Made by a program: the position numbers and the translations under genes. Under the pieces are notes generated by a model. That model was not told the origin of the DNA and searched no databases. It saw only the letters and a program-made list of their open reading frames with translations. DNA of 10,734 nt. Origin: JALXCG01 sp026991065 [NCBI: Gemmatimonadota bacterium]. GTDB lineage: Bacteria > GCA-2686955. The stretch lies in the NCBI GenBank assembly GCA_026991065.1, contig JALXCG010000810.1, positions 1 to 10,734 of the forward strand. The letters run 5' to 3'. This document shows, one piece after another, positions 322-10,697 of this stretch (position 1 is the stretch's first letter; the number at the start of each line of letters is the position of its first letter).

Positions 322-2052
322 ATGCGCTTTACGACATCCCTTGCCCTCCTGGGCCTGACTCTTCTGGCCGGTGGCTCCGCCCTGGCGGGTGAAGAGCGTT
401 GTGCCGTGTCCGAGTTGATGACTGCCACCTGGTGCGGTTACTGCCCCTACGCCGAAGAGGCCCTCTTGCGGCTTGAGGATGAGTATGACCGCAATCGGTT
501 CCTGGTGATGGCGTACCACGTGGATGACGAGTATTCCAACAGCGAATCGGATGCCCGGATCAGCTACTACCACATCTCCGGTACACCGACCAATGCGATC
601 GACGGATCGCGTTTGATCGTAGGGGGCTGGGACGGTGTTTACAATTCCTACAAGAGCCAGATCGACTCCGACCTGGCGACCGAGTCGCAGGTGTCGATGC
701 GCATCAGCGGCTCGATGATCGACACCCAGGTCGATTACGCGGTCGAGGTCACCGCAAACAGCATGCCCGACTATGTAACCCCACGTCTCTACGTCGCGCT
801 GGCCGAGCGCGGCTTGTGGGATGACGGGGCTGAGATGCGACCGGTCGTGCGGCGCATCGTCGGCCAGGATCTCGGCGGTCTCGCCGCCGCGGGGGATCAA
901 GTCCTGATCACCGGCTCCTTTACCATGGAAGAGGGTTGGAATCCGGCCGAGATGGAGGTGCTGGCCTTCATCCAGGATGATGGCAACGGCAGGCGCGTCG
1001 ACCAGGGGGCGCGAATGTTCTTCACCGATTTCGACGTCCCCGTTCGGTTGGTTACCGCCGCCGAGGACTCGGTTCGGACCATCAAGACCCACTTGACCAA
1101 CCCCAACTCCTATCCGATCGATATGCGGATGCAGATGGCGGATATGTCCGAGGAGGGGTGGATGGGCACCTTCTGCATTCTGGAGTGGGGGATCTGTCTG
1201 CCCGACTCGATCGACATCACCATGCCGCCGGATTCCACGGTGACCGTGAAGTTGCAGTGGATCGACACCGGCGCCACTGAAAAGACGGTGACCTCCAAGT
1301 TCCTGCTGAAGACCGGCGAGAACTTCGACACGGTGCGCGGGGTTACCTACACCGCGCGTTCGGGCAGCGTCGATCTCGGAGTTGCGGAACTGGTGATTGA
1401 TGACGATACCGACGGGGGCAGCAACGGTAATGGTGATGGTGTGCCGCAGCCGGGTGAGATGATCGAGTTCACCATCCGGGCGCAGAATGGCGGCAATCTG
1501 CTCGCCTATGATGTGAGTTCGCGGATGACGGCGAGCGAAACCAAGATTTATGTTTTCGAGCCCAACTCAACCTACGGCGACATCGCCGCCGGCGCCACGG
1601 TGGACGGCACCGTCGGCCGCTTCGCGGTCGACGAGACGCTTGAGCCCGGAATGGTCAATTTCTATGTTGCTTTTGAAGATGGTGAAGGGCACGAGATGAT
1701 CGACACGCTGGAGGTCGAGATCGGCGCGCCCACCGGCATCGCTGGCGAGAATCCGACCCTTCCCATGCCGCAAGTGACCGCGCTGTTCCAGAACCAGCCC
1801 AACCCCTTCAATCCCCGCACCACCATCAGCTACGACGTGGCCGGTGAGAACCAGCCGGTGCAACTGGCCATTTATGATTTGAGCGGCCATGAAGTACGGC
1901 GGTTGGTGGACCAGCCTCAGTCAGCCGGGCACCATTCGGTGGAGTGGAACGGCTACGACCGCCAGAATCGCCCGGTCGCCAGTGGCGTCTATCTGTACCG
2001 GCTGCGTGTTGGTGAAGAGAGTCATACTCGCCGCATGCTTTTGGTGAAGTAG
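322..2052 (+). CDS. Omp28-like secreted thioredoxin-fold protein with C-terminal FlgD-like domain
   Basis: The product is 576 residues and exported. A Sec signal peptide (about 1-22, cleavage after ALA) leads into a thioredoxin-like domain with WCGYC at 37-41 and the cis-proline motif GTPT at 87-90. This arrangement and the following beta-rich part to about 235 resemble the Omp28-related family. A second beta-sandwich (about 238-345) holds a CX6C pair (C285, C292) that may form a structural disulfide. A third (about 350-470) opens with an Asp/Asn/Gly-rich loop (360-373) of calcium-binding appearance followed by PQPGE. Residues 489-576 form a FlgD-like/T9SS-type-A-like terminal domain with PNPFNP at 493-498 and an ending of SGVYLYRL...RRMLLVK type. 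It probably acts outside the inner membrane as a thiol-disulfide or redox-fold protein; substrate and retention mechanism are unknown. It is first of four linked genes. The stop is repeated in frame (TAG TAG TAA, 2050-2058). The family call is good, the precise function open. Confidence 0.85.
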   Translation: MRFTTSLALLGLTLLAGGSALAGEERCAVSELMTATWCGYCPYAEEALLRLEDEYDRNRFLVMAYHVDDEYSNSESDARISYYHISGTPTNAIDGSRLIVGGWDGVYNSYKSQIDSDLATESQVSMRISGSMIDTQVDYAVEVTANSMPDYVTPRLYVALAERGLWDDGAEMRPVVRRIVGQDLGGLAAAGDQVLITGSFTMEEGWNPAEMEVLAFIQDDGNGRRVDQGARMFFTDFDVPVRLVTAAEDSVRTIKTHLTNPNSYPIDMRMQMADMSEEGWMGTFCILEWGICLPDSIDITMPPDSTVTVKLQWIDTGATEKTVTSKFLLKTGENFDTVRGVTYTARSGSVDLGVAELVIDDDTDGGSNGNGDGVPQPGEMIEFTIRAQNGGNLLAYDVSSRMTASETKIYVFEPNSTYGDIAAGATVDGTVGRFAVDETLEPGMVNFYVAFEDGEGHEMIDTLEVEIGAPTGIAGENPTLPMPQVTALFQNQPNPFNPRTTISYDVAGENQPVQLAIYDLSGHEVRRLVDQPQSAGHHSVEWNGYDRQNRPVASGVYLYRLRVGEESHTRRMLLVK

Positions 2053-4382: not shown

Positions 4383-5414
4383 ATGAAGCGATCATTGGCC
4401 CTCGGCCTCGTTTTTGGCGTCGCCTGCGCAGCCGGTTCCGCCCAAGCCGCCGACATTATCCCTCGCACCGTTGCCATGGAGCTGTTTACCGCCTCCTGGT
4501 GCGGTTACTGCCCGGCCGCGGATGCGGCGGCGGAGCAGTTGCGCACCGAAGAGGGCCGCGCCGGTACCGTTTTTGTGGAATACCACGTGAGCGACGCCCT
4601 CTCCAACAGTGACGGCAATCTGCGCCAGTCCTACTACGGTGTGACCGGAACGCCGACGATGATTTTTGACGGCATCAGCAAGGTGATCGGTGCCGGCGGG
4701 GATATGTACCCCACCTACCGGCAGCGTTTCGACTCGCGTCGCAACTACTCACCGATGGTGGACATTCGCGTGACCGGCGATATGACCGGCAATACCTGGA
4801 CGATTCAGGGGTCGGTCGAGGTCACCGAGCAGATCTGGCAGACGGGCACGCCGCAGATCCGCATCATGCTGACCGAGGACGATTTGACTGCCGGTGGCCG
4901 GCACTACAACGGGGTGCTGCGTGACCATGTGGTGGACATCCCCCTGAACGGGAAGAGCGTGGGTTCGGTCACCTATATCAACGAGAGCTTTACTCCGAAT
5001 GCTTCGTGGAAGAAGGATGACCTGAATGTCGTCGTGCTGGTACAGGAGACCAACTACAAAGAGATCATCGGCGCGAAGCGTTTGTCCGAGGTCTCCATGG
5101 ATGTCCAGGGCGAAAGCTACACGGTGGCCCGTGGGGAGCACCTGCAGGTTCCGATCTCGCTGGAGAACATCAGCCGCAACGACCAGGATCTGACCATCTG
5201 GATGATCGCCTACCGCACCAACGGCCACCAGGTGGGTCCCAATCCGATCTATTTGGACACCTATTCCATCGCTTCCGGCGCGGCCGAGGAGTATATGCTC
5301 GATTACCCGATTCCCGCCGGCGCGCCGCTGGGTACTTATAAGGTTGCGGCTTGGATCGGTACCAGCATGGACGATACCCTGGAGTGGGACACCTATTCGG
5401 TGACGATCCAGTAA
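4383..5414 (+). CDS. Second Omp28-like secreted thioredoxin-fold protein
   Basis: The product is 343 residues and exported, with a signal peptide at about 1-22 (cleavage after AQA). The thioredoxin-like domain has LFTASWCGYCP at 34-44 (C40, C43) and cis-proline P91 in TGTPTM. A following beta-rich region carries NGVLRD at 176-181, matching a conserved turn of Omp28-like proteins. A final Ig-like beta-sandwich (about 237-343) ends at IQ without a sorting-type tail. It is clearly a paralogue of the first gene in the window in its first ~230 residues, but lacks the calcium-loop sandwich and the FlgD-like domain. Presumed role is an envelope thiol-disulfide or redox-fold protein, perhaps periplasmic where the larger paralogue is surface-directed; this is inference. 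The start has GGAG at 4372-4375. It lies 46 bases after the barrel gene and is last in the operon, 31 bases before the terminator stem. Confidence 0.85.
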   Translation: MKRSLALGLVFGVACAAGSAQAADIIPRTVAMELFTASWCGYCPAADAAAEQLRTEEGRAGTVFVEYHVSDALSNSDGNLRQSYYGVTGTPTMIFDGISKVIGAGGDMYPTYRQRFDSRRNYSPMVDIRVTGDMTGNTWTIQGSVEVTEQIWQTGTPQIRIMLTEDDLTAGGRHYNGVLRDHVVDIPLNGKSVGSVTYINESFTPNASWKKDDLNVVVLVQETNYKEIIGAKRLSEVSMDVQGESYTVARGEHLQVPISLENISRNDQDLTIWMIAYRTNGHQVGPNPIYLDTYSIASGAAEEYMLDYPIPAGAPLGTYKVAAWIGTSMDDTLEWDTYSVTIQ

Positions 5415-5512: not shown

Positions 5513-8500
5513 ATGGCCAAGGGTGACGACCGCGATGTGGTGGCCGCCGCGCGTTCGACTCTGCGGGAGAACCCGCGCGCTGCGGAGGTAGCGACTGAGG
5601 CGGTCATGGCTCTGCTCGCGCGTGGCGAACCGGACGGAGTGCGGGAGATCTTCGCCCTGGTGGATCCCGCGGTTCTCGCCAGCGATTCCGGTCTGCTCGA
5701 TCTGCAGGCGTCGCTGGCCCTGATCGAAGAGCGCCACGAGGATGCTCTTGAATTCCTCCAGCGACTGGCGGAGGTCACCGACTCCGGAGCGCGCCCGGCA
5801 CTGCGTTTGGCGAAGATCCTGGTACATCTGGAGCGGCCGGAAGCGGCGATTGAGTGGGCGCGCAAAGCGCGCGACCGCGATCCCGGTGACGTGACGGTGA
5901 GCCTGGAAGCGATCACCATCTTCTCTCGCGCCGGAGCTGTGGCCGACGCCCATGCCGAGGCTGCGCGTGTGCTGAGTGCGCACAAGGGTGATCCGCGCTT
6001 GCAGTTGCGCCTGGGGTTGCTGGCCCGGCGTGTCGGCGACCTTGATCTGGCGGTTGACGCACTGGCCGCCGCGACCCTGAGTGATGCCCCCTCCGCCGAG
6101 GCTTTTCTCCACCTGGGGTTGATCTTCTGGGACCACGTCCGCGGTCCGGAGTTCGCGCGCTCTGTGCACCAGATTGCTATCGAGCGATTCGGTGCCGATG
6201 CGGCCAACCTGCGGGAATTGGGCTGGATCGAGATCCTGAACGGCAACCGGCCGGCCGGTACCGCGCTGCTGCTGGCCTCTCTGAGTGCATTCGACAAGGA
6301 GCCGGCGCCCCTGATCCTGGAGCAATGGGCCGGCGAGGCATTGGCCGGCAGCGCGGAGGAGATTGTTGCCCAGTTGGAGCGCCCGCTGCCCGCGGTAATT
6401 CAGCATGGTGTCGGACGCTACTTCGGCAACCGGGGGCGCTTCGACCTGGCGGAGTCCTGGTTTCGCGAAGCCCTTGTGGAGGCACCCGCTGCCGCCGCGA
6501 TTCGCGTCGATCTGGCGCGCATTCTTGCGGAGCAACTGGAGCGCCCCGACGATGCGGTGGCCGAGTTGGAGCAGATCGACCTGGAGAAGGTGGAGGATCC
6601 GCAGACTCGGGCTGAGGTCGCTCATCTGCGAATGATGCTTGGCGATGGCCGGGAGAGCGGCACCGAGCCGGCCATCCCGGAGGAAGCGGGACGCCTCAAC
6701 GGTGGCGGGGTTCTGGCGATGCACGCCCATCCACTCGATGCCGACGCGGCCGAAGGGCGCGCCTGGCGGGGTGAGGATGGGCTGGTTTCACGGGTGATGA
6801 GAATCCTCGCGCGACCCGCGCTGCGTTCGGTGCTTCTGGTTGGCGAGACGGGAGTTGGCAAATCTTCTCTGGTTGCCGAGGTGGCCCGCCGCATCGCTTC
6901 CGGGCAGTGCCCCGAGAGGTTGCACAAACATCGGATCCTGGAACTCTCTCCGACCGCACTGCAGACCGACATCAAGTACCTGGGTGAGTGGCAGACCAAG
7001 ATCACTCGCCTGGTGCGCGAGATTCGCGAGGCGCCCGGGACCATCCTGTATATTCCGCGTTTTCATCACCTTCTCGGTGCCGGAGCTACTTTGGCCCACG
7101 AGGAGGATATGATCGGCGCTTTGGCTCCGCTGCTTGCGGCGGATCAGTTGGTAGTGGTTGCCGACGGCAATCCGGAGCCGTTGCGCCGCATGATGCGCAC
7201 CCGGCCGGAGTTGGACCGGGCATTGACGCAGGTTGAGTTGCCGGAGCCGGATCGTGCCCAGACGCGGAAGATTCTGCTCGCCGCCCGCTCCTGGATTCGC
7301 GGCAACGACGGCCCTCGAATTGAAGCCTCCGCGGTGGATCGAGCGATCGATCTTTGCAGCCGCTTTCTGCGTCGCGAGCATTTTCCCGCCAAGGGGATCG
7401 ATCTGTTGCGGGCTGCCCATGAGCGGGTTCGGGAGAGCGGTCGCAATCTGGTTACGCCGGAGGATGTTGCCTATGAACTCTCCGCCAAGACCGGGCTGCC
7501 ACGCTTCCTGGTGCTGGATTCCGAGATGCTCAATCTGGACCAGACCCTGGCGTTCTTTCGCGAGCGCATTCTGGGCCAGGAGGAGGCCTTGACCGCGCTG
7601 CAAGACACGGTGGCACGGATCAAGACCGGTTTGCAGGATCCGGAGCGACCACTCGCAACCTATCTGTTTACCGGGCCCACCGGCGTGGGCAAGACCGAAA
7701 CCGCGAAAGTTCTGGCCGCCTATCTCTTCGGTGACGAGAAGCGGATGATTCGCTTCGACATGAGCGAGTTCGTCGACCATTTGGCGGTGGAGCGGTTGAT
7801 TGAAGCCCGGGACCAGCAGATCGGCTCTCGCGGGCATCTGACCGGTGCGGTCCGTGAGCACCCACTCTCCGTGATTCTTTTCGACGAGATCGAGAAGGCG
7901 CACCCGCGGGTCTTCGATCTTCTGCTGCAGGTACTCGGCGAGGGGCGCTTGACCGACGCCCGCGGTGAGACGGTGGATTTCCACGAGAGTGTGATCATCA
8001 TGACCTCCAATCTGGGCTCGGAGCGCGGCGCGGATGGAGGGTTGGGCTTTACCCGTGATCGGGCGGCCGCGGAAGCATCGGCGATTCGGGAGGAGGTGCA
8101 GCATTTCTTTCGTCCCGAATTCATCAATCGGATCGATCGTGTGGTGGCGTTCCGGCGCCTCTCGCGCGCCACTTTGCGAACCGTGGCACAGCGTGAAATC
8201 GGCCGCTGCATCGCCCGCGAAGGGGTGGTCCGCCGGGGGATTGTGGTGGAGATCGACCCCAGTGTGGCCGACCGCGTTCTGGAAGAGGGGCAGAGCGTTC
8301 GGTACGGTGCGCGGCAACTGAAGCGCGCTGTGGAGGAACTGGTGGCGGTGCCGCTCGCGCGCCTGATCGCATCGCGCCAGATCATGAGTGACGAGACGGT
8401 CCGCCTGGTCGCCCGGGAGCGGCGGATTCACGCCGATGTCGTGCGCGAGGCACCGGCCAGTCGGCGCGCGGCGGTGGTGCGCTTCGGCAATCGCGCAGCT

Positions 8501-9544
8501 CGTACCGTAGAAGAGGTCCGCGCCGGGATCGGCAGCGCGGGAGAGCGTGTGGAGCATCTGGCGCAAGCGTTTGATCTGCCCGGAGCGCGGCTGCGGGCGG
8601 ATGAACTGCGCCGCGAGATGGCACGTCCCGGTTTTTGGGACCATGCGGCGGCATCGGCGCGGACCCTGCGGGCTTTGGCGGAGGCCAATCGCCTGCTGGA
8701 GCGGGACAAATCGGCGCGCGTGGCACTGGAGGAGGTGGGATTGCTGGTCGACCTGATCGCGGAGGGGCACCGGGAGGTTCTGGAGGAAGCTGACCAGAAG
8801 TTGCGTGAGGTTGAAGTGGAGATCGAGAAGATGGAGCTGGAAACCCTGCTCTCCGCGCCGCGCGATCGCTGCTCCGCTTTTCTGGTGATCTCCGCCGGCG
8901 GCCAAAGCAAGGAAGACGAGATCTGGTTGCGGGAGCTGATACAGCTCTATGTCAAGTGGGGCGAGGGGCGCGGGATGGAGGTCGCGGTGGTCGCCGAGCG
9001 CGGTTTCCGTGGCGCGGTGCGCGGTGGGGCGGTTCTCCATGTGAACGGTCCCTTCGCTTACGGCCTTCTGCGATCGGAGACTGGGACCCACCGCAAGGTA
9101 TTCCAGTCGAAAGACAACGGTCGCTCAGCAGTGGTCGCGCGCTTGCGCGTGGTGGCGGAGCCGGCCGAAGCGGTGGCCCCGCCCGAGGACCTGCGTTATC
9201 GCGCCACCCGGGCCTCAAGCCCCCGTTACATCAGCAACGGTCGCGGCATTGTGTCGTTTCGGGCCGGCGGCGAGCGTTGGTCGCTGCGGACTCCGCATGA
9301 GGCGGCGGCCGCCGCGGAGTTCGCCGCCCTTTTCGCGACCGCTCTCGAACACTCTTCGATCTCGGTCGATCGTTTGGCGACGATCGCCCGCAATGTCGTG
9401 TTTTCGCCCCGGCAGATCGTGGAGGATCCTCGCAGTGGACAGGAGAGCACTGCGTTGCGGGCCTATCTTGACGGCGAGATCGACGAATTTATTCTTGCCT
9501 GCCTGGCGCTCGAGCCCAGCCGGGAACCGCAGCCGATCGCGTGA
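5513..9544 (+). CDS. TPR - double AAA+ (ClpA/ClpB-type) - degenerate release factor 2 fusion protein
   Basis: The product is 1343 residues, cytoplasmic, with no signal peptide. Residues 1-380 are helical TPR-like repeats in place of the Clp N-domain. AAA module 1 (about 415-645) has Walker A GETGVGKS (444-451) and pore-loop KYLGEW (488-493). Its Walker B acids are replaced by P515-R516, and one of two paired arginine-finger residues is A570, so hydrolysis there is unlikely. No ClpB coiled-coil M-domain follows. AAA module 2 (about 680-960) has Walker A GPTGVGKT (721-728), Walker B ILFDE (788-792), sensor-1 N833, arginine finger R873 and sensor-2 R934. The GYVG pore loop reads QQIG (768-771). 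Residues about 1010-1343 follow release factor 2: PGFWD (1039), a coiled coil, a domain-2 strand/helix (1126-1157), AYGLLRSETGTHR (1182-1194) and tail DPRSGQE...LDGEIDEFI (1305-1327). The SPF codon-reading motif and GGQ are missing. I infer an ATP-driven remodeller that docks on ribosomes without terminating translation. It is followed 43 bases on by a DUF2058-like gene. Confidence 0.88.
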   Translation: MAKGDDRDVVAAARSTLRENPRAAEVATEAVMALLARGEPDGVREIFALVDPAVLASDSGLLDLQASLALIEERHEDALEFLQRLAEVTDSGARPALRLAKILVHLERPEAAIEWARKARDRDPGDVTVSLEAITIFSRAGAVADAHAEAARVLSAHKGDPRLQLRLGLLARRVGDLDLAVDALAAATLSDAPSAEAFLHLGLIFWDHVRGPEFARSVHQIAIERFGADAANLRELGWIEILNGNRPAGTALLLASLSAFDKEPAPLILEQWAGEALAGSAEEIVAQLERPLPAVIQHGVGRYFGNRGRFDLAESWFREALVEAPAAAAIRVDLARILAEQLERPDDAVAELEQIDLEKVEDPQTRAEVAHLRMMLGDGRESGTEPAIPEEAGRLNGGGVLAMHAHPLDADAAEGRAWRGEDGLVSRVMRILARPALRSVLLVGETGVGKSSLVAEVARRIASGQCPERLHKHRILELSPTALQTDIKYLGEWQTKITRLVREIREAPGTILYIPRFHHLLGAGATLAHEEDMIGALAPLLAADQLVVVADGNPEPLRRMMRTRPELDRALTQVELPEPDRAQTRKILLAARSWIRGNDGPRIEASAVDRAIDLCSRFLRREHFPAKGIDLLRAAHERVRESGRNLVTPEDVAYELSAKTGLPRFLVLDSEMLNLDQTLAFFRERILGQEEALTALQDTVARIKTGLQDPERPLATYLFTGPTGVGKTETAKVLAAYLFGDEKRMIRFDMSEFVDHLAVERLIEARDQQIGSRGHLTGAVREHPLSVILFDEIEKAHPRVFDLLLQVLGEGRLTDARGETVDFHESVIIMTSNLGSERGADGGLGFTRDRAAAEASAIREEVQHFFRPEFINRIDRVVAFRRLSRATLRTVAQREIGRCIAREGVVRRGIVVEIDPSVADRVLEEGQSVRYGARQLKRAVEELVAVPLARLIASRQIMSDETVRLVARERRIHADVVREAPASRRAAVVRFGNRAARTVEEVRAGIGSAGERVEHLAQAFDLPGARLRADELRREMARPGFWDHAAASARTLRALAEANRLLERDKSARVALEEVGLLVDLIAEGHREVLEEADQKLREVEVEIEKMELETLLSAPRDRCSAFLVISAGGQSKEDEIWLRELIQLYVKWGEGRGMEVAVVAERGFRGAVRGGAVLHVNGPFAYGLLRSETGTHRKVFQSKDNGRSAVVARLRVVAEPAEAVAPPEDLRYRATRASSPRYISNGRGIVSFRAGGERWSLRTPHEAAAAAEFAALFATALEHSSISVDRLATIARNVVFSPRQIVEDPRSGQESTALRAYLDGEIDEFILACLALEPSREPQPIA

Positions 9545-9587: not shown

Positions 9588-10697
9588 ATGGCACGATCGA
9601 TCAACAATCTGAGAGAACAGCTACTCAAAGCCGGCCTGGTTACGGCCGATGAGATTGCGCGCGTTGAAGAGGAACGCAAGCGGCCGCCCGCGAGTTCAGG
9701 CAAACGCCGCGGTGACAAGGCCGGCGGTGCATCTCGCAGGGAGGGCCAGGCGCCGCGCGGGCGGCGCAAAGGCGGAGGTGGGCGGAAGCCGGCCAGAGGA
9801 GAATCCGCGGAGCATCGCCCCGGTTCGACGCAACGTCAGTCCGGCGGTCGCCCGGCACCGGTGCGCGGTCGCGATGAGCAGGCTGTTTCTGCACGCAATG
9901 GCGAGACCGGAGCGAAGCAGCAGCAGGCTGCTCCCGCCCGCCGGCGGAAGCGCTCGCGGGGGCGCAAGCGGGCCGTTGTGGCGGAGAATGTGCGGGCGAA
10001 GATTGTTCGCCACTGTCAGGCGGAGCTGATTCGGCTGCAGCCGGGAAGCGCGGTTTTCAACTATGTGCTGCCCAACTCGCCGCGGGTCCGGCGGGTGGAG
10101 ATGGCGGAGGCGCAGCAGCAAGCGCTGGTTTCCGGGGAGTGCGCGCTGGTGGCGATCAACTCGGATGTGCGCTTTGCGCTGCGTAGCAAGGAAGCGCCCA
10201 AAACCTTCGGTCGCCGGGCAAAGCGCTACTACACTGGCGGCCCGGCTACTTCGACCAAGGCCCCCGATGACGGGGATCTGGGGTTGATGAAGGCGGCCGC
10301 GGCTCGAGAGCTGCGAAGCATGGATCCGCGTTTGGTACTTTACCTGCGGGAAGAGAGCGGGAAGGGCCAGCCGGAGGCAGACGCGCCCGCCGCGGAACCT
10401 GCCGCCGAGCGCTCTGTGCCGGAAGCGGAGGTCACTGCGTCGGCCACCGTCGCCGCGCCGGCTGTTTCGGCCTCTGAATCCGATGTTGAGACGGCCGAGG
10501 AGAATCCGGCCGTGGAACAGAAGCCGGCTTCCTCGACGACCGAGGGGGTGCCGGCCGGGGTGCCAGAACTCGCTGCGGCCGCCGTGCAGGATGCGCCGGA
10601 GCCCGTTGCCGCCGAAGCTGTGGCGGAGCCCGCTGCCGCCGTTCCGGTTGAGCCCGCCACGGCCGAATCCGACCCCGGTCCGGGGAACACTTTTTAG
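9588..10697 (+). CDS. DUF2058 (YaiL)-like protein with charged disordered insertions
   Basis: The product is 369 residues, about twice the length of E. coli YaiL. The N-terminus LREQLLKAGLVT (8-19) closely matches the DUF2058 opening helix. The second conserved block (about 134-202: FNYVL, V-R-R-V-E, then ALVSGECALVAI) corresponds to the family's FNF...I-F-V...L-I-NG...L-A-I core. Between them, residues 31-133 are Arg/Lys/Gly-rich and probably disordered, suggestive of RNA binding. Residues 203-258 are less distinctive, with RYY and a short helix. Residues 262-365 are an Ala/Pro/Glu-rich acidic tail of imperfect short repeats. DUF2058 proteins are commonly labelled nucleoprotein or polynucleotide-associated, with no established activity. 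The gene begins 43 bases after the Clp/RF2 fusion gene behind a weak AGAAGA site, so co-transcription is likely and a joint role around RNA or ribosomes is plausible. Domain assignment is good; function is not known. Confidence 0.8.
   Translation: MARSINNLREQLLKAGLVTADEIARVEEERKRPPASSGKRRGDKAGGASRREGQAPRGRRKGGGGRKPARGESAEHRPGSTQRQSGGRPAPVRGRDEQAVSARNGETGAKQQQAAPARRRKRSRGRKRAVVAENVRAKIVRHCQAELIRLQPGSAVFNYVLPNSPRVRRVEMAEAQQQALVSGECALVAINSDVRFALRSKEAPKTFGRRAKRYYTGGPATSTKAPDDGDLGLMKAAAARELRSMDPRLVLYLREESGKGQPEADAPAAEPAAERSVPEAEVTASATVAAPAVSASESDVETAEENPAVEQKPASSTTEGVPAGVPELAAAAVQDAPEPVAAEAVAEPAAAVPVEPATAESDPGPGNTF

What the first reader, a model, noticed from the sequence alone, without database searches (positions are those of the whole stretch)
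8540..9541. A release factor 2 body fused to a Clp-type AAA+ ATPase, with both functional motifs erased
Seen: residues 1010-1343 keep the RF2 landmarks in order, namely the PGFWD helix, coiled coil, the domain-2 strand/helix, AYGLLRSETGTHR and the C-terminal DPRSGQE/LDGEIDEFI tail. The codon-recognition SPF region reads S-K-D-N-G-R (residues 1199-1204, 9107-9124), with the P and F lost. The GGQ loop between conserved RAS and N reads SPRYI (1236-1240, 9218-9232). Known: SPF reads the stop codon and GGQ triggers peptide release. Inference: the domain kept ribosome A-site shape but lost termination chemistry, so it would dock an ATP-driven machine on ribosomes, perhaps stalled, hibernating or mis-terminating ones. 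I know of no described system with this architecture.
Basis: partly seen in the sequence, partly recalled or inferred. Interest (0 to 1): 0.93.

Follow-up and report, generated by a model that had tools for sequence, protein, structure and literature searches.

The report
Clp ATPase carrying a release-factor-2 scaffold
One intact bacterial gene joins an ATP-driven Clp-type machine to the body of the protein that ends translation, with the parts that read stop codons and release the finished chain gone; related fusions are kept in other bacteria, so it looks like an old, reused part and not a dead one.

Summary
One uninterrupted ORF (5513-9544, 1343 aa) reads TPR region, Clp-type D1, Clp-type D2, then an RF2-shaped arm (8540-9541). 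The stop-codon loop (SPF), the catalytic GGQ loop and the alpha5 tip are gone; the fold core remains. GGQ stands at its place in 0 of 54 fusion-type rows (window included) and 107 of 107 ordinary RF2s. The arm is under purifying selection in myxobacteria-like relatives (dN/dS median 0.17). The motor is altered too: in 18 of 18 aligned fusions D2 keeps its ATPase residues but not the GYVG pore loop, and D1 lacks the Walker B DE pair. In a tree of 16 such arms they fall on one side of a 100/99 branch. Best reading: an unnamed Clp-like remodelling ATPase using an RF2-shaped docking arm, most likely toward the translation apparatus; the target is inferred. My searches listed no paper describing it.

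The parts
5513..9544 (+). whole fusion ORF, 1343 aa, ATG start, TGA stop
   Evidence: open frame; homologue of 1345 aa, 61% identical, same order of domains in G001
5513..6712 (+). N-terminal region with TPR repeats (residues 1-400; border approximate)
   Evidence: Pfam TPR_19 and other TPR models; alignable in G001, TPR models in G135; no TPR model in the four other fusions scanned, L165, L180, L170, L171
6713..7444 (+). Clp-type D1 AAA module (about residues 401-644)
   Evidence: aligned with ClpC D1, 91.5 bits
6842..6865 (+). D1 Walker A, kept
7049..7066 (+). place of D1 Walker B; acidic DE pair replaced by PR
7445..8416 (+). Clp-type D2 AAA module with D2-small domain (about residues 645-968)
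   Evidence: AAA_2 and ClpB_D2-small; ClpC D2, 237.5 bits
7673..7696 (+). D2 Walker A, kept
7811..7834 (+). place of the D2 aromatic pore loop; GYVG not kept
   Evidence: coordinates counted by hand
7877..7900 (+). D2 Walker B, kept
8120..8137 (+). D2 arginine finger, kept
8303..8326 (+). D2 sensor 2, kept
8540..9541 (+). RF2-like arm, about residues 1010-1343
   Evidence: prfB model, PDB RF2 chains, Foldseek and VIA-align to RF2
8888..8911 (+). place of the RF2 alpha5 tip, not kept; holds a GGQ by letters only
9077..9094 (+). E-x-G-x-H-R stretch, kept in 54 of 54 fusion-type rows
9098..9121 (+). place of the SPF stop-codon loop, not kept
9209..9247 (+). place of the catalytic GGQ loop, not kept
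9422..9445 (+). C-terminal D-P-R-S/T-G stretch of RF2 domain 2/4, largely kept

Best explanation
An intact, old protein family: a Clp-type AAA+ ATPase (probably a ring; inferred) whose C-terminal arm is an RF2 body turned into a docking part. Shown: the architecture, the RF2 descent, the loss of the SPF, GGQ and alpha5-tip elements, and the kept D2 ATPase residues with altered D1 and lost pore aromatic. Inferred: D2 burns ATP to move or re-arrange a partner and not to thread whole chains; the RF2-shaped arm does not terminate translation but binds a partner, most likely something that RF2 binds or resembles (ribosome A-site region, stalk base, or an RF partner), so that the ATPase is brought to the translation apparatus.
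For: Domain calls and PDB matches. 18 of 18 aligned fusions keep D2 Walker A, Walker B, sensor 1, arginine finger and sensor 2, and lack GY(V/I)G in D2. At their own alignment columns GGQ stands in 0 of 54 fusion-type rows and 107 of 107 ordinary RF2s, SPF in 0 of 54 and 103 of 107; the alpha5-tip pattern occurs in 0 of 54 and 95 of 109. Of 59 columns conserved in ordinary RF2s, 18 are kept in at least 51 of 54 fusion-type rows, 4 in 43-46, 37 in 16 or fewer. 16 arms on one side of a 100/99 branch against 20 ordinary RF2s and 2 RF1s; D2 modules of 15 fusions and 3 paralogues in a 100/100 clade apart from 20 other Clp-type D2 rows. dN/dS median 0.17 for the arm, under 1 in 125 of 125 pairs. Model of the arm: pLDDT mostly above about 83 outside the domain 3 region; E. 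coli RF2 1gqe Z 27.5. Analogues in print: release-factor bodies without their motifs used for mRNA protection (PrfB3, PMC5897788, passages) and ribosome hibernation (Balon, PMC10901736, passages).
Against: The loops by which RF2 grips the decoding and peptidyl-transferase centres (recalled) are exactly what is gone, so a canonical A-site fit is unlikely. The model is unsure over the domain 3 region (model residues 221-290, pLDDT under 50). No neighbour shared across groups points to translation: Omp28/TlpA-type genes and DUF2058 in the window, PyrR/PyrB-like genes in G332, an HNH endonuclease in G506. The arm is acidic (pI 5.9, net -5), though ordinary RF2s are too (median 5.2).
Confidence: 0.42

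Rival explanations
1. The RF2-shaped arm is only a scaffold: a stable coiled-coil and alpha/beta platform used to oligomerise or to hold an unrelated protein partner, with no link to the ribosome.
For: SPF, GGQ and alpha5 tip are lost while 18 core columns are kept; no translation gene shared as neighbour across the groups looked at.
Against: E-x-G-x-H-R is kept in 54 of 54 rows and most of the D-P-R-T-G stretch in over 50, perhaps more than a mere scaffold needs (inference; whether these residues lie on the surface was not measured).
Confidence: 0.33
2. The arm binds RNA in the manner described for chloroplast PrfB3, and the ATPase remodels an RNA-protein complex or protects a transcript.
For: PrfB3 is an RF2 relative that lost SPF and GGQ and binds preferentially to the petB 3' UTR (PMC5897788, passages).
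Against: The arm is acidic; no RNA target is visible.
Confidence: 0.13
3. It is a ribosome rescue or hibernation factor: the arm occupies or probes the A site of stalled or idle ribosomes and the ATPase loads or removes it.
For: Balon, of an unrelated release-factor fold and lacking its two motifs, does bind the A site of hibernating ribosomes (PMC10901736, passages).
Against: Balon has its own replacement contacts; none is recognised here, and the domain 3 region is modelled poorly.
Confidence: 0.1
4. Decaying fusion or assembly artefact.
For: Some relatives are interrupted or bear stops: G580; G534, G489 and G492 with a stop inside the match and G511 with a frame of only 421 aa in an assembly of two contigs. 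Loss of the gene, or errors, do occur.
Against: Intact frame here, same order of domains in four groups of genomes (window/G001, G135, G332 group, G029 group), dN/dS under 0.4.
Confidence: 0.02

Closest known systems
Peptide chain release factor 2 (RF2, prfB)
   Same: fold, PCRF domain, part of the conserved columns (18 of 59 kept nearly throughout), C-terminal D-x-R-T-G and F-I stretches
   Different: no SPF, no GGQ loop, no alpha5 tip; fused behind a Clp ATPase; 129 bits against a prfB cut-off of 370
ClpC/ClpA/ClpB (Hsp100) ATPases
   Same: D1-D2 layout, D2 catalytic residues, D2-small domain
   Different: D1 Walker B pair not kept, D2 GYVG lost, TPR region at the N-terminus, RF2-like arm at the C-terminus; D2 tree places it outside 20 other Clp-type D2 rows
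Chloroplast PrfB3
   Same: RF2 descendant that lost SPF and GGQ (PMC5897788, passages read)
   Different: the passages read describe no ATPase partner; acts on petB mRNA
Balon, Dom34/Pelota
   Same: release-factor-type body without the catalytic motif, put to another use (PMC10901736 and PMC6514570, passages read)
   Different: archaeo-eukaryotic release-factor fold, unrelated to the bacterial RF2 fold (PMC6514570, passages)
Vms1-Cdc48
   Same: a release-factor-like protein working with an AAA+ chaperone (PMC6514570, passages read)
   Different: separate proteins, unrelated release-factor fold, Cdc48 not Clp

Membership tests
Class-I release factor RF2 | RF2 fold / PCRF domain | tested here: met
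   PF03462 2.3e-20; 1gqe Z 27.5, 317 residues, rmsd 4.4; the model was made with RF2 rows in its alignment, so the fold search is not independent of the sequence match
Class-I release factor RF2 | SPF stop-codon motif | tested here: not met
   0 of 54 fusion-type rows incl. window; 105 of 109 ordinary RF2s. A looser SP(F/Y/W/A) pattern occurs in 8 of 54 rows, never at the SPF place
Class-I release factor RF2 | GGQ catalytic motif in domain 3 | tested here: not met
   0 of 54 at its own columns, 107 of 107 ordinary RF2s; two fusion rows hold the letters elsewhere; the second G of the motif aligns with a G in 52 of 54 rows, not in the window or G001
Class-I release factor RF2 | NCBIfam prfB cut-off 370 bits | tested here: not met
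   124.8 bits (whole protein) and 129.1 bits (arm)
Clp/Hsp100 ATPase | two AAA modules with Walker A | tested here: met
Clp/Hsp100 ATPase | D2 Walker B, sensor 1, arginine finger, sensor 2 | tested here: met
   18 of 18 aligned fusions
Clp/Hsp100 ATPase | D1 Walker B acidic pair DE | tested here: not met
   not kept in 18 of 18; PR in 2, ED in 1 (G135, may still work), RD or PD in 15
Clp/Hsp100 ATPase | D2 aromatic pore loop GY(V/I)G | tested here: not met
   0 of 18; the G048 Clp control keeps it; also absent in the two G128 paralogues
ClpB / ClpA as named by NCBIfam | curated cut-offs 1232.1 and 993.15 bits | tested here: not met
   397.2 and 366.8 bits
ClpA/ClpC protease partner | ClpP-binding loop in D2 | not tested
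   not looked for
PrfB3-type RF2 derivative | binding to mRNA | not testable with these tools
   needs a wet experiment
Pseudogene | broken frame or relaxed selection | tested here: not met
   open frame; dN/dS median 0.17, 125 of 125 pairs under 1, measured in myxobacteria-like relatives, not in the window's own genus

The most novel reading that the evidence does not exclude
A bacterial translation quality-control machine in one chain: an RF2 decoy arm, stripped of stop reading and peptide release, takes a non-threading Clp motor to the ribosome, where ATP hydrolysis in D2 pries off or re-arranges a factor. It would be the bacterial counterpart, made from unrelated parts, of the Vms1-Cdc48 pairing, and kept in several deep groups of bacteria.
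Probability: 0.2. Interest if true: 0.85.

Novelty: new variant of a known kind. Interest (0 to 1): 0.6.

Why it matters
Release factors are thought of as bound to their one job. A family in which the RF2 body has been built into a Clp ATPase, cleared of its reading and cutting loops, and then kept under selection in several groups of bacteria shows the fold reused as a part, and gives a single tractable gene (in large-genome, probably myxobacterial relatives) with which to ask what a Clp motor would want with an RF2-shaped arm. It also warns annotators: prfB-type hits to such proteins are not release factors.

Tried and rejected
Active release factor: rejected, SPF, GGQ and alpha5 tip all missing. 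The GGQ letters at the alpha5 tip: rejected as catalytic, wrong place. Replacement of RF2 in this genome: G000 shows one full RF1-type gene and a piece that I read as ArfB-like (recalled) but no ordinary RF2; the assembly is 83.8% complete, three of the six genes that I took as real in the window end in TGA, and G001, G029, G135, G332, G506, G643 and G595 each have two PF00472 matches of full model length in long frames, so the gap is most likely the assembly's. Assembly chimera: rejected by G001. Defence system: the PADLOC hits lie in the AAA parts. Mobile or viral carriage: tblastn found 30 plasmid and 24 phage records, none covering 80% of the arm; the rows listed (10 of 30, 10 of 24) cover 53-57%, and those with a named feature are prfB; PHROGs gave an ATP-dependent protease family for the AAA part. 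Shared neighbourhood: seen only between window and G001 (TlpA-, DUF6029- and Omp28-like genes by similarity; DUF2058 by Pfam, with a PD40 gene between in G001). Sister paralogues in G128/G264 with an eroded RF2 stretch: a motif found by chance in 6 of 20,000 shuffles, hhalign E 0.0064 but probability 5.9, and no single-sequence phmmer hit at E 1: suggestive only. A1 against A2 by hhalign is not independent, both hold the window. Papers: seven searches. Five bear on whether this fusion is in print; by title and abstract start none of the rows listed is on it (19 of 19, 20 of 39, none found, 25 of 38, 10 of 10). PMC6514570: section 2.4 read whole, other passages by find; PMC5897788 and PMC10901736: passages only. 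Supplements and databases of domain architectures were not looked at.

Full report
What is there. The window holds one open frame, 5513-9544, of 1343 aa. Pfam marks TPR repeats, AAA modules (AAA_2 1.5e-48), the ClpB D2-small domain and PCRF, the RF1/RF2 domain (2.3e-20). Against solved structures the middle part matches ClpC best (1.1e-96) and the last 332 aa RF2 best (1.7e-22). The finding's interval is the RF2-like arm.

What is erased. Aligned with ordinary RF2s, the arm keeps the first helical domain, the domain 2/4 core, E-x-G-x-H-R and D-P-R-(S/T)-G. Gone are the alpha5 tip, the SPF loop and the GGQ loop. By pattern, over 54 fusion-type rows and 109 ordinary rows: SPF 0 against 105, the alpha5-tip pattern 0 against 95, GGQ letters anywhere 2 against 109; the two are at the alpha5 tip (window) and in the linker before the arm (L171). 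At their own alignment columns GGQ stands in 0 of 54 against 107 of 107 and SPF in 0 of 54 against 103 of 107 (two of the 109 ordinary rows were dropped for odd length). A looser SP(F/Y/W/A) occurs in 8 of 54 fusion-type rows, never at the SPF place. The 54 rows include near-identical species, one lone arm without AAA (G488), one short frame (G511) and one cut by a contig end (G517). Of 59 columns that ordinary RF2s keep in at least 95% of 107 rows, 18 are kept in 51 or more of 54 fusion-type rows, 4 in 43-46 and 37 in 16 or fewer. One of the 18 is the second G of the GGQ, which aligns with a G in 52 rows but not in the window or G001. That the lost loops are the ones that read and cut is established knowledge of RF2 (recalled), not a measurement here.

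The motor. In 18 of 18 aligned fusions (my choice out of those fetched) D2 keeps Walker A, Walker B, sensor 1, arginine finger and sensor 2. In 18 of 18 the D2 pore loop lacks GY(V/I)G, which the G048 Clp control keeps; the two G128 paralogues lack it too. The D1 Walker B pair DE is not kept in 18 of 18: PR in 2, ED in 1, RD or PD in 15. So ATP turnover in D2 looks possible, threading in the usual way less so (inference).

Who has it. G001, the only other genome held of this phylum, has the same fusion (1345 aa, 61% identity) in a like neighbourhood, and has ordinary RF1 and RF2 besides. It also has a second RF2-like piece without GGQ at a contig end. Among 386 genomes, 9 pass 1e-88 with the whole protein; of these G000, G001, G135, G332 and G029 are fusions by frame and arm match, G128 and G264 are AAA relatives without a clear arm, and G048 and G245 matched in the AAA part only. 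In G332's phylum, 8 of 301 sampled genomes match the whole protein at 1e-120. In G135's phylum 2 of 8, one of them interrupted.

Age and condition. The arms of 16 fusion-type rows (of 54) lie on one side of a branch with 100/99 support against 20 ordinary RF2s (of 109) and 2 RF1s; G001's second piece sits beside the window and G001 arms. Long branches are a caution. D2 modules of 15 fusions sit with two G128 paralogues and one G506 paralogue in a 100/100 clade apart from 20 other Clp-type rows; within it the fusions need one change against the two G128 rows, with the G506 paralogue beside those (89/83). One fusion event, followed by descent or transfer, is the simplest reading. In 125 of the 435 possible pairs among 30 myxobacteria-like loci, those that passed a dS filter and held no stop, dN/dS is 0.17 (median) for the arm and 0.105 for the 1200 bases before it (mostly D2), never above 0.40 for the arm. 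The pairs are not independent. The arm is kept, not decaying.

Structure. The arm modelled with 34 ordinary RF2s gave mean pLDDT 76.6, mostly above about 83 outside the domain 3 region (model residues 221-290), which is below 50. Its nearest solved folds are RF2, 1gqe Z 27.5 over 317 residues, rmsd 4.4. As ordinary RF2s were in the alignment, this agrees with but does not independently prove the fold.

Function. Best reading: a Clp-like remodelling ATPase with an RF2-shaped docking arm, most likely toward the translation apparatus (0.42). Shown: architecture, descent, erasures, selection. Inferred: ring, remodelling without threading, and the target. The strongest argument against is that the ribosome-gripping loops are just what is missing; the scaffold-only rival gets 0.33. 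Neighbours do not decide.

In print. Five searches listed no paper that by title or abstract start is on a Clp-RF2 fusion; two of the lists were cut. The release-factor survey PMC6514570 has no word beginning with 'clp' in its main text, and its section on bacterial factors, read whole, does not mention such a fusion. PrfB3 and Balon show that release-factor bodies without their motifs can be put to other use.

Noticed in passing
L174:6451-7284 (G488): An RF2-like arm without the AAA part lies between an integrase-family (XerC/D-like) gene and a proteasome-subunit-family (HslV-like) gene, as a 277-aa ORF; no AAA match to the window in the 12 kb fetched.
   Followed up: partly
L037:1-729 (G001): A second RF2-like piece without GGQ, cut by the contig end, closer to the window's arm than to ordinary RF2.
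   Followed up: partly
L165:5045-9715 (G332): The fusion lies directly after a phosphoribosyltransferase gene (PyrR-like, name recalled) and before an aspartate/ornithine carbamoyltransferase gene (PyrB-like).
   Followed up: partly
L166:3022-10282 (G128) and L127 (G264): Clp-like paralogues, two in tandem in G128 and in the fusion clade of the D2 tree; the C-terminus of one in each genome bears what may be a far more eroded RF2 stretch.
   Followed up: partly
G506:C1:1939314-1946190: Three Clp-like matches in a row in one large genome; one of them (L222) falls in the fusion clade of the D2 tree.
   Followed up: no
window 9588-10697 and L036:1448-2068: A DUF2058 gene follows the fusion, directly in the window and after one more gene in G001; the window copy has a long Ala/Pro/Glu-rich C-terminus.
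   Followed up: partly
window 322-2052 and 4383-5414: Two Omp28-like proteins (weak matches) flank a TlpA-type redoxin and a DUF6029 gene; the first ends in a FlgD-Ig-like domain.
   Followed up: no
L112 (Thermoactinospora rubra): The ordinary RF2 lies in an open frame of 856 aa, far longer than usual; possibly only an open upstream stretch.
   Followed up: no
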